This document shows, piece by piece, positions 22,016 through 27,242 of a DNA stretch of 55,149 nucleotides (within the stretch, counting starts at the first letter, position 1; the number at the start of each line of letters is the position of its first letter). A program made the position numbers and the translations under genes. The stretch is taken from contig JAJYBG010000003.1 in NCBI GenBank assembly GCA_021779075.1, positions 1 through 55,149 on the forward strand, written 5' to 3'. This DNA comes from Actinomycetes bacterium. GTDB taxonomy: Bacteria; Actinomycetota; Actinomycetes; Actinomycetales; Microbacteriaceae. The notes under the pieces are model-generated. The model saw only the letters and a program-made list of their open reading frames with translations, was not told where the DNA came from and searched no databases.

Positions 22016-22678
22016 GTGGAGCTCATCACGCTGCTCGGTTCGCCGATCGGCACCGACGGTCTGACGCTCTCGTTCGCCGTCGACGAGCCAGCCGTGCTGT
22101 TCGACCACCGCGACGCCTCAGCTCGGACCGTTCCGCTGGGGCTGCGCGAAGCCGGGCTGACTCTCCTCGTCATCGAGCCCGCCACGCCGCCGAAGGTGTT
22201 CGGCGACGAGGTCACCGCCAAGGAGGATGCCCTGACCTCGGCGACGGCGACCCTCGGCGTCGCCTCGCTGCGGGATGTCTCGGTCACCGACCTCGCGCGT
22301 GTCCGCGACCGGCTCGACGGCCCCACCTACCGCGTCGTGCGCCACGTCGTCACCGAGAACCAGCGGGTGCGCGACACGCTCAGGATGCTGCGTGACGAAG
22401 GGCCGCAGGGCATCGGAGACCTGCTCTACGAGTCGCACCGCTCCCTGCGCGACGACGTGCAGATCTCACGCCCGGAGCTCGACCTCGCGGCCGAAGTGTC
22501 CCAGAACTACGGCGCGCTCGGCGCCCGTCTCACCGGCAGCGGCGACCAGCTCGCCGTCATCGCGCTGGTGCCGGTCGGGCTCGTCTCGCAGGTGCAGGTC
22601 TCGGTCGACAGTGCCTTCGCCGAGCACGGCTACGCCCAACCCGAGATGTACACGGTGCAGCCGACGGAGTCGGCGTGA
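22016..22678 (+). CDS. Standalone galactokinase/GHMP-kinase C-terminal-like protein lacking the N-terminal ATP/galactose-binding half
   Basis: DEPAVLFDHRDASARTVPLGLREAGLTLLVIE...YRVVRHVVTENQRVRDTLRMLRDEG...ESHRSLRDDVQISRPELD...GALGARLTGSGDQLAVIALVP aligns by eye to the GalK C-terminal half. Confidence 0.72.
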   Translation: MELITLLGSPIGTDGLTLSFAVDEPAVLFDHRDASARTVPLGLREAGLTLLVIEPATPPKVFGDEVTAKEDALTSATATLGVASLRDVSVTDLARVRDRLDGPTYRVVRHVVTENQRVRDTLRMLRDEGPQGIGDLLYESHRSLRDDVQISRPELDLAAEVSQNYGALGARLTGSGDQLAVIALVPVGLVSQVQVSVDSAFAEHGYAQPEMYTVQPTESA

Positions 22679-23157
22679 CGGCAGGGTCGCACCCGGCGGT
22701 CGACCGGTTCGCCGCGGCGCTGGCCGCGCACGGCCTGCACCCCGAGATCATCTGGCACGAGGAATCCACGCCGTCGGCCGCCGCCGCGGCGGAGGCGCTC
22801 GGCATCGACGTCGGCGCCATCGCGAACTCCCTCGTCTTCACCCTCGACGGCGAGCCGGTCCTCGTCATGACGAGCGGCGGTCACCGGGTCGACACCGAGT
22901 TCCTCGGCCGTGCGCTCGGCGGCACGCTCGAGCGCGCCTCAAAGGAGGCGGTGAAGGAGGCCACCGGCCAGACGATCGGCGGGGTCGCGCCGACAGGGCA
23001 TCCCGCGCCCGTGCGCACCTTCGTCGACCGCTCGCTCGCACGGTACGGCACGGTGTGGGCCGCCGCGGGCCACCCGCACACGTCGGTCCCGCTCAGCTAC
23101 GACGAGCTGCTGCTCGTCACGGCCGGCACCGAGGTCGACGTCGAGCCGGCGGTGTGA
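22675..23157 (+). CDS. YbaK/EbsC-family aminoacyl-tRNA deacylase-like protein
   Basis: EIIWHEESTPSAAAAAEALGIDVGAIANSLVFTLDGEPVLVMTSGGHRVDTEFLGRALG...GGVAPTGHP. Confidence 0.9.
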   Translation: MTAGSHPAVDRFAAALAAHGLHPEIIWHEESTPSAAAAAEALGIDVGAIANSLVFTLDGEPVLVMTSGGHRVDTEFLGRALGGTLERASKEAVKEATGQTIGGVAPTGHPAPVRTFVDRSLARYGTVWAAAGHPHTSVPLSYDELLLVTAGTEVDVEPAV

Positions 23158-23261: not shown

Positions 23262-23780
23262 TCAGTCGCCTGCCGACGACGCAAAGAGGCGGCCCCGCTC
23301 GACGTAGTGGCGCGCGTTCTCGTGGATGCTCTCGACCTCGGCATCCGTCAGCTCGCGGATCACCTTGCCGGGCACCCCCGCGACGAGCGAGCGCGGCGGG
23401 ATGACCTTGCCCTCGCTGACGAGCGCGCCCGCGGCGATGAGGGATTCGTGCCCGATCACCGCGCGGTTCATGATCGTCGCGTGCATGCCGACGAGGACAT
23501 CGTCCTCGATGGTGCAGCCGTGCAGCACCGCGCTGTGGCCCACCGAGACGCCCGCGCCGACCGTGAGCGGGATGCCGTCGTCGGCGTGGCATGCGACGAG
23601 GTCCTGCAGGTTCGATCTCTCGCCGAGGATGATGGACTCGTCGTCGGCGCGCAGCACCGCGTTGAACCAGACGCTCGAGTCCGCGGCGAGCCGCACGGCG
23701 CCGATGAGGACGGCGCCCGGCGCGACATAGGCAGTGGGGTCGACCGCGGGCGAGCCGATGGGAAGAGTCAGACGGGTCAT
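23262..23780 (-). CDS. Gamma-carbonic-anhydrase-like (left-handed beta-helix) protein
   Basis: AYVAPGAVLIGAVRLAADSSVWFNAVLRADDESIILGERSNLQDLVACHAD...VGHSAVLHGCTIEDDVLVGMHATIMN. Confidence 0.93.
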   Translation of the reverse strand: MTRLTLPIGSPAVDPTAYVAPGAVLIGAVRLAADSSVWFNAVLRADDESIILGERSNLQDLVACHADDGIPLTVGAGVSVGHSAVLHGCTIEDDVLVGMHATIMNRAVIGHESLIAAGALVSEGKVIPPRSLVAGVPGKVIRELTDAEVESIHENARHYVERGRLFASSAGD

Positions 23781-23952: not shown

Positions 23953-24828
23953 TCAGCGGCGCTCTGCGGCGTCGACCACGTTGGCGAGCAGCATCGCCCG
24001 GGTGAGCAGGCCGACTCCGCCGGGCACCGGCGAGAGCCATCCTGCGACGTCCCAGACGCCCGGGTCGACGTCGCCCGCGAGTTTCGCGCGACCGGATTCC
24101 GTCGTACCGACCCGCGAGACGCCGACGTCGACGACCGCAGCGCCCGGCTTCACCCAGTCGGCCTTGACGAGGCCGGGTACGCCGACGGCGGCGATGACGA
24201 TGTCGGCGCGGCGCACCTCCGCGGCGATGTCCGGGGTGCGCGAATGGGTCAGCGTCACCGTGGCGTCGATGCCCTTGCGGGTGAGCAGCAGGCCCAGCGG
24301 CCGGCCGACCGTGAGCCCGCGGCCGATCACCGTCACACGACGGCCGGCGATCGGGATGTCGTAGCGACGCAGCAGTTCGACGACGCCGGCGGGGGTGCAG
24401 GGCAGCGGGGAATCCAGCTCGCCCTCGACTCCGAGCACGAGCTTGCCGAGGTTCATCGGGTGCAGGCCGTCGGCGTCCTTGGCGGGGTCGACGAGCTCCA
24501 AGGCGCGATGCTCGTCGAGACCCGTCGGCAGCGGCAGCTGCACGATGAAGCCGGTGACCTCGGGGGCCGCGTTGAGATCGGCGATGGCGGCGTCGACATC
24601 GGCCTGGGACGCGGTCGCCGGCAGGTCGACGCGGATCGACTCGATGCCGACCTCGACCGAGTCGCGGTGCTTGCCTGAGACGTATGAGACCGAGGCGGGG
24701 TCCGCGCCGACGAGCAGGGTCGCCAGGCCCGGGACAACGCCACGCGCCCGCAGCGCCGCCACCCGTAGAGCCAGCTCCGACTTGATGGCCGCGGCGGTCT
24801 CCACGCCGTCGAGGCGGATCGCCGTCAT
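23953..24828 (-). CDS. folD: Methylenetetrahydrofolate dehydrogenase/cyclohydrolase
   Basis: [16 protein letters not shown]...[15 protein letters not shown]...[10 protein letters not shown]...[18 protein letters not shown]...; internal start of ORF 23953..24906. Confidence 0.95.
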
Positions 24829-24832
24829 CGGC

Positions 24833-26098
24833 CTAGAGCCCCGGGTAGAGCGGGAAGGCCACGGTGAGCGCGGCCACCCGCGCGCGCAGTGCCGGAATGT
24901 CGGCATCCGGCCGCAGTGCGAGCGCGATGACGTCGGAGACCTCGGCGAACGCGGCGTCGTCGAAGCCGCGGGTCGCGAGCGCCGGGGTGCCGATGCGCAG
25001 GCCCGAGGTCACCATCGGCGGGCGCGGATCGAACGGCACCGCGTTCTTGTTCACTGTGATGCCGACCTCGTGGAGCCGGTTCTCGGCGTCCTTGCCGGTG
25101 AACTCGCTCTCGCGCAGGTCCGCGAGCACGAGGTGGACGTCGGTGCCCCCGGTGAGCACGTTGACGCCGGCCGCGCGCGAGGCATCCGACGTCAGCGCCG
25201 CGGCGAGCAGTTTCGCGCCGCGGATGGTGCGCTCCTGGCGGTCCGCGAACTCGGGAGTGCCGGCGAGCTTGAACGCCGTCGCCTTGGCGGCGATGACGTT
25301 CATGAGCGGGCCGCCCTGCTGACCGGGGAAGACGCTGGAGTTGATCTTCTTGGCGAGCGCCTCATCGTCGGTGAGGATGAACCCCGACCGCGGGCCGCCC
25401 ATCGTCTTGTGCACGGTCGACGAGGTCACGTGTGCGTAGGGCACGGGCGAAGGGTGCACTCCGGCCGCGACGAGCCCGGCGAAGTGCGCCATGTCGACCC
25501 AGAGGTACGCGCCGACCTCGTCGGCGATGGCGCGGAACGCGGCGAAGTCGAGCTGGCGGGGATACGCCGACCAGCCGGCGATGAGCACCTTCGGCCGGTG
25601 CTCGAGTGCCTTCTCGCGCACGACGTCCATGTCGACGAGGAAGGTCTCGGGGTCGACGCCGTAGGACGTCGCGTGGTAGAGCCTGCCCGAGAAGTTGAGC
25701 TTCATGCCGTGGGTGAGGTGGCCGCCGTGCGAGAGCTCCAGGCCGAGGATCGTGTCGCCAGGCTCGGCGAGCGAGGCGAGCACGGCGGCGTTCGCCGAGG
25801 CGCCCGAGTGGGGCTGCACGTTGGCGAAGCCTGCGCCGAACAGCGCCTTGGCGCGCTCGATGGCGAGGGATTCCGCGACGTCGACGAACTCGCAGCCGCC
25901 GTAGTAGCGCCGGCCGGGGTACCCCTCGGCGTACTTGTTGGTGAGCACCGATCCCTGCGACTCGAGCACGGAGCGCGGGACGAAGTTCTCGGACGCGATC
26001 ATCTCGAGGAAGTCGCGTTGGCGGCCGAGCTCGAGCCGGAGGACCTCGGCGATCTCGGGGTCCACCTCGGCCAGCGATGCGTTGAAGGTGTCGGCCAT
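24833..26098 (-). CDS. glyA: Serine hydroxymethyltransferase
   Basis: [41 protein letters not shown]...[19 protein letters not shown]. Confidence 0.97.
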
Positions 26099-26154
26099 GA
26101 CGGGCTCCTCAGGGTCTTCGTGCCTGTCGGCACAACGGTGTGGATGAATCTGGA

Positions 26155-26235
26155 TCGGCCCAGGCGTTCGACCGATTGACCCTGTAGGAGCCGCTCCCCG
26201 GTGGTGGCCACCTCATGCGCCAGTCGCGACGCGTC
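26155..26235 (-). ncRNA. ZTP riboswitch (pfl motif) upstream of glyA
   Basis: Reverse strand GTCGCGACTGGCGCATGAGGTGGCCACCACCGGGGAGCGGCTCCTACAGGGTCAATCGGTCGAACGCCTGGGCC has the pfl core elements GACUGGCG, GGUGG..CCACC, GGGGAGC and CGCCUGGGC, in order. Confidence 0.9.
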
Positions 26236-26390
26236 CAGAATACTGGATGCCGCGGCCCGCCTCCCCTTCTCAACGCGCATCCCGTGCTCGAGCCCATCGC
26301 GCCGGCCTGGATCGGCAACGCGATCCGGCTGGTCATCGTCGCCTTCGACCACCCGCAGCTCCGGCGCATCGAAGCCGCTAGCCTGAGCGA

Positions 26391-27242
26391 GTGACCTCGA
26401 CCCATTGGGTGCTCACACTGGTGTGCGCCGACAGACCCGGCATCGTGCACGCTGTCAGCGGCGCGATCGTCGCGGCCCGCGGCAACATCACCGAGTCGCA
26501 GCAGTTCGCCTCCGACGACACCGGGCGCTTCTTCATGCGGCTGCAGGTCGAGTCGGATGCCTCACGCGAGAGGTTCATCGCCGCGTTGGCACCCGTCGTC
26601 GAACGCTTCGACATGGAGTGGCACCTCGACGTCGTCGGCCGGCCGATCCGCACGCTGATCCTCGTCTCGACCGCAGCGCACTGCCTCGCCGACCTGCTCT
26701 TCCGCCAGCGCGCCGGGCAGCTCGCGATCGACGTGCCGCTCGTGCTCGCGAACCACGAGGCGCTCGGCGATCTCGCCGCGTTCTACGGCGTTCCCTTCGA
26801 GCACCTGCCGGTGACGTCACCGGAGTCGAAGGCGGCGCTCGAGGCGCGCGTGCTCGACGCCGTCGAGGAGCACGACATCGAGCTCGTCGTCCTCGCCCGC
26901 TACATGCAGATCCTGTCGCCCGGGCTGTGCGAGCGGCTCGAGGGCCGCATGATCAACATCCACCACTCGTTCCTGCCCGGCTTCACGGGCGCGAACCCTT
27001 ACAGGCAGGCCCACCAGCGCGGCGTCAAGCTCGTCGGGGCCACCGCCCACTTCGTCACGAGGGACCTCGACGAAGGGCCGATCATCGAGCAGAACGTCGT
27101 GCGCGTCGACCACGCGGACTCGGTCGCGCAGCTCACCGCGATCGGGCAGGACGAGGAGAGCCGCACGCTGCGTCAAGCGGTCAAGTGGTTCTCGGAGGAC
27201 CGCGTCCTTCTCGACGGGCGACGCACCATCATCTTCAAATAG
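26391..27242 (+). CDS. purU: Formyltetrahydrofolate deformylase
   Basis: VLTLVCADRPGIVHAVSGAIVAARGNITESQQF...NIHHSFLPGFTGANPYRQAHQRGVKLVGATAHFVTRDLDEGPIIEQ. Confidence 0.96.
   Translation: MTSTHWVLTLVCADRPGIVHAVSGAIVAARGNITESQQFASDDTGRFFMRLQVESDASRERFIAALAPVVERFDMEWHLDVVGRPIRTLILVSTAAHCLADLLFRQRAGQLAIDVPLVLANHEALGDLAAFYGVPFEHLPVTSPESKAALEARVLDAVEEHDIELVVLARYMQILSPGLCERLEGRMINIHHSFLPGFTGANPYRQAHQRGVKLVGATAHFVTRDLDEGPIIEQNVVRVDHADSVAQLTAIGQDEESRTLRQAVKWFSEDRVLLDGRRTIIFK

What the first reader, a model, noticed from the sequence alone, without database searches (positions are those of the whole stretch)
26099..26235. ZTP riboswitch on glyA with an SD-sequestering partner inside the aptamer linker
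Sequence: the pfl core elements occur in order on the minus strand, about 60-135 nt upstream of the glyA ATG. The linker between the two aptamer halves (minus strand GGCTCCTACAGGGTC, 26178-26192) is complementary over 14 bp, with one bulged nucleotide, to GACCCTGAGGAGCC (26103-26116), which contains the glyA SD GAGGAG 6 nt before ATG. Knowledge: ZTP riboswitches sense ZMP/ZTP and regulate one-carbon and purine genes such as glyA, folD and purH. Inference: translational control, with the ligand-stabilised pseudoknot (CGCCUGGGC, 26157-26166) disfavouring the linker:SD helix. The linker itself acting as anti-SD looks unusual next to the common terminator-type platform. folD follows glyA directly and purU is divergent, so the switch sits in a one-carbon locus.
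Basis: partly seen in the sequence, partly recalled or inferred. Interest (0 to 1): 0.75.

Follow-up and report, generated by a model that had tools for sequence, protein, structure and literature searches.

The report
glyA ZTP riboswitch with linker anti-SD
In front of the serine hydroxymethyltransferase gene of a Microbacteriaceae bacterium (probably Gryllotalpicola) sits a standard ZMP/ZTP-sensing riboswitch, and the loose linker joining its two halves is complementary to the gene's ribosome-binding site; relatives across the family show the same kind of co-evolved pairing, mostly just upstream of the Shine-Dalgarno sequence.

Summary
Observation confirmed. RF01750 hits 26237-26151 (minus) at 53 bits, gathering 39, upstream of glyA-folD, with purU divergent. 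The linker 26192-26178 pairs with 26116-26103 (7 bp, bulged A, 7 bp), covering the glyA SD. None of 20,000 linker shuffles reaches it, and it is the best partner in 55 kb apart from the linker's own antisense.

It is not an isolated curiosity. In about 250 glyA leaders from Microbacteriaceae and other Actinomycetes, the linker co-evolves with the ribosome-binding region. Native linker:RBS pairs beat swapped pairs in similarity bins up to 0.9 (e.g. 117 independent pairs, p=4e-11), while a control region shows nothing. The signal lies at about -20 to +3 of the SD. So the family-wide contact is mostly just 5' of the SD; full SD burial as in the window is the extreme case.

Best reading: a translational ZTP ON-switch whose OFF helix is built from the P1 3' strand plus linker, unlike the terminator type that invades P3/pseudoknot. 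Ligand response and direction are inferred. Energies suggest kinetic control. New variant of a known kind. Key ZTP papers were not available to check priority.

The parts
26237..26242 (-). -10 promoter element TATTCT; inferred transcription start near 26230
   Evidence: 116 of 151 distinct leaders have a TANNNT-type hexamer (at least 4 of 6) at exactly -20/-19 from the CTGG of the aptamer; the start itself is inferred from spacing
26151..26237 (-). ZMP/ZTP riboswitch aptamer (RF01750)
   Evidence: 53 bits, gathering 39
26226..26230 (-). P1 5' strand GUCGC (pairs with 26190-26194 GCGGC, one U.G)
   Evidence: alignment; P1 strands co-vary over relatives (GAC/GUC, GGC/GCC, GAU/AUC)
26218..26221 (-). 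pseudoknot 5' partner GGCG
   Evidence: alignment; established pfl fold
26200..26212 (-). P2 hairpin GGUGG CCA CCACC
   Evidence: alignment
26178..26192 (-). P1 3' end (GGC) plus linker GGCUCCUACAGGGUC = anti-SD strand
   Evidence: co-evolution
26154..26176 (-). P3 stem-loop with pseudoknot loop CGCC and GGGC (CGCCUGGGC 26158-26166)
   Evidence: alignment; fold
26117..26153 (-). spacer between aptamer and SD strand, with hairpin GUGCC GACA GGCAC
   Evidence: fold
26103..26116 (-). GACCCUGAGGAGCC: SD strand, complementary to the linker over 14 bp with one bulge
24833..26098 (-). glyA, serine hydroxymethyltransferase
   Evidence: NF000586 574 bits, cut-off 335
23953..24828 (-). folD, start codon 4 nt after the glyA stop; probably in one transcript
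   Evidence: NF010789 438 bits, cut-off 401; start ATG at 24828 from the ORF
26391..27242 (+). purU, divergent formyltetrahydrofolate deformylase
   Evidence: TIGR00655 307 bits, cut-off 286

Best explanation
This is a ZMP/ZTP riboswitch that controls translation of glyA (and, by proximity, folD). The transcript starts at the P1 5' strand. Without ligand, the P1 3' strand and the linker between the two aptamer halves pair with the ribosome-binding region, in this genome with the SD itself, and keep glyA off. When 10-formyl-THF is short and ZMP/ZTP rises, the ligand locks P1, pseudoknot and P3 before the SD strand is made or before it can invade; the linker is held away and the RBS stays open. 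Shown: the aptamer match, the complementarity, its co-evolution across relatives, its position at the RBS, the gene context. Inferred: ligand binding, ON direction, translational level, kinetic rather than equilibrium choice.
For: RF01750 match, glyA/folD/purU. Helix is 0 of 20,000 shuffles and unique in the window. SD unpaired probability 0.002, against 0.48 with shuffled linkers. 268 glyA leaders: 23-24% reach p<=0.05 under composition-keeping shuffles. 151 distinct leaders: linker complementarity mainly in windows around -20..+3 of the SD (mean z -0.82 at -16..-1; windows further upstream about +0.3). Full-leader partition functions: 3.5 against 1.2 linker:RBS pairs, 50 of 150 leaders at p<=0.05. 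Swap test significant in similarity bins from below 0.5 up to 0.9, control region null. P3/pseudoknot segment shows no such complementarity (z +0.2). 25 of 40 strong helices use the P1 3' strand. No terminator on this strand.
Against: On average the linker does not lower SD accessibility itself over the family. Column-by-column covariation is weak because the register slides. In the window the OFF fold is -72.6 kcal/mol, against -54.0 with the aptamer forced and -39.4 with the linker kept single as well (no pseudoknot or ligand energy), so ligand could hardly reverse it at equilibrium. About 11 bp of the helix can coexist with P1 in secondary structure. One of four genus members (L003) shows no strong linker:RBS helix. 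purH leaders show no linker:RBS signal.
Confidence: 0.72

Rival explanations
1. Same aptamer and same helix, but the helix acts mainly on the standby region or the early ribosome contact upstream of the SD (and perhaps mRNA stability), and SD burial in the window is a lineage-specific extension.
For: Family signal centred 3-16 nt 5' of the SD; the SD itself is not less accessible on average, while the wider RBS is slightly so (0.405 against 0.428, p=1e-5).
Against: In the window the SD is fully paired, and several relatives (L020, L046, L062, L159, L211) also pair the SD with the linker.
Confidence: 0.35
2. The riboswitch works through Rho-dependent or other transcription control and the linker helix is only a by-product.
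For: Translational blocks often lead to Rho termination in bacteria (general knowledge).
Against: No intrinsic terminator on this strand in the leader; the co-evolving contact sits at the RBS.
Confidence: 0.1
3. The window's very stable helix has made the switch a permanent OFF or a strongly biased, poorly inducible form in this lineage.
For: 18-33 kcal/mol between OFF and aptamer states before ligand and pseudoknot are counted; the P1 U.G wobble weakens P1.
Against: Aptamer core fully conserved; cotranscriptional order lets the aptamer form about 40 nt before the SD strand is made.
Confidence: 0.12
4. Chance complementarity in GC-rich RNA.
For: High G+C, SD-like purine runs.
Against: 0 of 20,000 shuffles, swap test and control region, position profile.
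Confidence: 0.02

Closest known systems
ZMP/ZTP (pfl) riboswitch, terminator type (e.g. Clostridium beijerinckii pfl, Fusobacterium ulcerans, Thermosinus carboxydivorans)
   Same: Same aptamer family (RF01750), same pathway genes; glyA and folD listed among pfl targets in PMC2864571; ligand expected to turn the gene on
   Different: There an invading strand disrupts the apo aptamer, P3 and pseudoknot first, and builds an intrinsic terminator (PMC10085676, PMC7484762, PMC10907184). Here there is no terminator and the P3/pseudoknot segment is not the partner of the platform; the linker and P1 3' strand pair with the RBS
Complete ZTP covariation model of the 2026 NAR paper (PMC13273304)
   Same: Looks at aptamer plus platform by covariation
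   Different: Built from terminator-filtered sequences; in the passages read, a translational glyA type is not described
Translational strand-exchange riboswitches in general (for example add adenine, thiB TPP; named from general knowledge and from references in PMC13273304)
   Same: Aptamer strand also serves as anti-RBS strand
   Different: Here the exchange strand is the variable linker between two halves of a pseudoknotted aptamer

Membership tests
ZMP/ZTP riboswitch (RF01750) | Covariance-model score above the curated threshold | tested here: met
   53.0 against 39 bits
ZMP/ZTP riboswitch (RF01750) | P1-J1/2-P2 half with CUGGCG and GGGGAGC, and P3 with CGCCUGGGC forming the pseudoknot | tested here: met
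   Conserved letters present in the alignment; GGCG 26221-26218 complementary to CGCC 26166-26163
ZMP/ZTP riboswitch (RF01750) | Upstream of one-carbon/purine genes | tested here: met
   glyA, folD, purU; second copies before purH-like genes in relatives
ZMP/ZTP riboswitch (RF01750) | Binding of ZMP/ZTP | not testable with these tools
   needs in-line probing or SHAPE
Terminator-type ZTP platform | Intrinsic terminator overlapping the 3' part of the aptamer | tested here: not met
   no terminator-like site on the minus strand in 25700-26700
Translational (RBS-occluding) platform | RBS paired in one of two alternative states | tested here: met
   SD unpaired probability 0.002 in the window; prediction only
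Translational (RBS-occluding) platform | Evolutionary support for the RBS-occluding helix | tested here: met
   swap test and position profile
Translational (RBS-occluding) platform | Strict mutual exclusion with the ligand-bound aptamer | tested here: inconclusive
   3 nt of P1 shared; about 11 bp can coexist with P1 in 2D; 3D not modelled

The most novel reading that the evidence does not exclude
Actinomycete glyA ZTP riboswitches form a distinct, so far undescribed translational type, in which the supposedly unconstrained linker between the two aptamer halves is the regulatory strand and co-evolves with the RBS.
Probability: 0.5. Interest if true: 0.6.

Novelty: new variant of a known kind. 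Interest (0 to 1): 0.52.

Why it matters
Mechanistic papers on ZTP riboswitches available here concern terminator types and treat the linker as variable filler. If the linker is the anti-RBS strand in a whole bacterial family, it explains why it varies (it must track each RBS), gives a translational model for a well-studied aptamer, and makes a testable prediction of different roles for P1/linker and P3/pseudoknot in the two types. The start of transcription at P1 and the fixed -10 element also define the exact RNA to test.

Tried and rejected
Column covariation over related pairs and in one clade: too few double changes because the register slides; not decisive, not used as main evidence. A second helix on alignment A1 failed on string length and was dropped. 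SD-only accessibility as family-wide measure: no effect, so the claim was moved to the wider RBS. purH leaders as a second test set: no signal in 14. Intrinsic terminator: none. P3/pseudoknot as platform partner: no complementarity. The first permutation test could be inflated by shared base composition, so composition-keeping shuffles and the swap test replaced it. Kim 2015, Trausch 2015 and Strobel 2019 are not in the paper library.

Full report
WHAT IS THERE. On the minus strand of the window, upstream of glyA, cmscan finds one ZMP-ZTP riboswitch, 26237-26151, 53.0 bits against a gathering score of 39. glyA, folD and the divergent purU are confirmed by NCBIfam models over their cut-offs; folD starts 4 nt after the glyA stop. 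It is the only RF01750 match in this genome, a MAG about 89% complete. A genus mate lies on a contig of the same length as Gryllotalpicola ginsengisoli NZ_AULK01000005, so the genus is probably Gryllotalpicola, family Microbacteriaceae.

THE LINKER:SD HELIX. GGCUCCUACAGGGUC (26192-26178) and GACCCUGAGGAGCC (26116-26103) form 7 bp, a bulged A, and 7 bp. RNAduplex gives -28.8 kcal/mol; 0 of 20,000 shuffles of the linker reach that, though the best comes close at -28.0. Over 3,674 stretches of 60 nt on both strands of the window, only the platform and the linker's own antisense reach it. The minimum-energy fold of the leader is built around this helix. In partition-function folds the SD is unpaired with probability 0.002, against 0.48 when the linker (beyond its first three letters) is shuffled. 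No intrinsic terminator lies on this strand.

RELATIVES. RF01750 is found in 355 of 400 genomes of the same family, 78 of 85 genera, and 132 of 198 of an order sample. I collected 372 loci, of which 307 give a parsed glyA leader and 268 are distinct in linker and platform. Linker sequences differ widely, yet composition-keeping shuffles give p<=0.05 in 23-24% of leaders. In 151 leaders filtered for low similarity, the excess complementarity is concentrated in 16-nt windows from about -20 to +3 of the SD (mean z -0.61, -0.82, -0.71), with a weaker dip over the SD-to-start stretch and the first codons, and none further upstream. Full-leader folds show 3.5 expected linker:RBS pairs against 1.2 with shuffled linkers; 50 of 150 leaders have p<=0.05.

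CO-EVOLUTION. The strongest test exchanges RBS regions between two species and asks whether native combinations pair better than swapped ones. They do in all similarity bins below 0.9 (independent pairs: native favoured in 57 against 23, 89 against 28, 83 against 30, 52 against 20, and 23 against 13; p from 4e-11 to 0.02; no difference above 0.9, where the sequences hardly differ), while a control region 20-52 nt upstream of the SD shows nothing. This statistic cancels composition and conservation that belong to one partner alone. In the genus of the window, L002 and L004 have linker:RBS helices just 5' of the SD, and the window's helix lies over the SD; L003 has no strong one by partition function.

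Over the family the contact is mostly 5' of the SD or on both sides of it (for example GACUGGC with GCCAGUC between SD and UUG start in an Agromyces-like group). SD accessibility itself is not lowered on average (0.42 against 0.40, 0.41 against 0.40); the wider RBS is slightly less open (0.405 against 0.428, p=1e-5). The window is the most extreme case of direct SD burial among the distinct leaders.

ANATOMY OF THE SWITCH. A TANNNT-type -10 element lies at a fixed distance upstream of the aptamer in 116 of 151 leaders; in the window it is TATTCT 26242-26237. Transcription therefore probably starts at the P1 5' strand (near 26230), and P1 is about 5 bp: GUCGC/GCGGC with one U.G. P1 strands co-vary among relatives. 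The OFF helix takes GGC from the P1 3' strand; 25 of 40 strong helices in relatives also use that strand. About 11 bp of the helix can coexist with P1 in secondary structure until the last GCC is transcribed. That a long helix between P1 and P3 would prevent the pseudoknotted, ligand-bound form is an inference from the known fold.

ENERGETICS. Nearest-neighbour energies are -72.6 (free), -54.0 (aptamer helices forced) and -39.4 kcal/mol (aptamer forced and linker single). Pseudoknot and ligand are not included, but the gap is large, so the choice is probably made during transcription, before the SD strand appears; this would agree with the kinetic control reported for a terminator-type ZTP switch (PMC7484762).

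SPECIFICITY. The P3/pseudoknot segment, which the invader attacks in terminator types (PMC10907184, PMC10085676), shows no complementarity to the RBS (z +0.2), while linker and P1 3' strand do (21% of leaders below z -1.64). The conserved GGGGAGC segment also has a negative mean (z -0.51) but fewer strong cases (12%). Second riboswitch copies in relatives sit before purH-like genes and show no linker:RBS signal (14 leaders, mean z -0.02), so the arrangement seems particular to glyA, with the small sample in mind.

LITERATURE. glyA and folD are known pfl targets, with terminators as the described platform (PMC2864571). The variable linker is mentioned as such (PMC10085676), and extra helices in it are noted (PMC7484762). 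A 2026 covariation study of whole ZTP riboswitches used terminator-filtered sequences (PMC13273304). Nothing found in the held library describes a linker-based translational type, but the discovery and structure papers are not held, so priority is open.

VERDICT. The aptamer is a new member of a known class; the platform is a well-supported variant, translational and linker-based, conserved as a principle though not as a sequence.

Noticed in passing
window 26237-26242 (minus) and 116 of 151 relatives: A -10 hexamer (TANNNT, often TAGACT) at a fixed distance of 19-20 nt upstream of the aptamer CTGG; the Rfam model's outer P1 pairs overlap the promoter and are probably not transcribed.
   Followed up: yes
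L021, L043, L076, L114, L116, L202, L204, L209, L213, L222, L307-L309, L317, L325: Additional ZTP riboswitches upstream of a gene that reads as purH (bifunctional IMP cyclohydrolase, by its N-terminal motif), without the linker:RBS complementarity.
   Followed up: partly
L157, L186, L251, L253, L362, L366, L367, L369, L371: One group of leaders has a long linker (about 37-42 nt) with an apparent internal hairpin (CUCCGG..CCGGA) and a pyrimidine-rich end.
   Followed up: no
window 22675-23157 plus strand: ORF that reads like a YbaK/prolyl-tRNA deacylase-type protein, by eye only.
   Followed up: no
window 23262-23780 minus strand: Gamma carbonic anhydrase-like protein downstream of folD (NF050158, below the curated cut-off).
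   Followed up: partly
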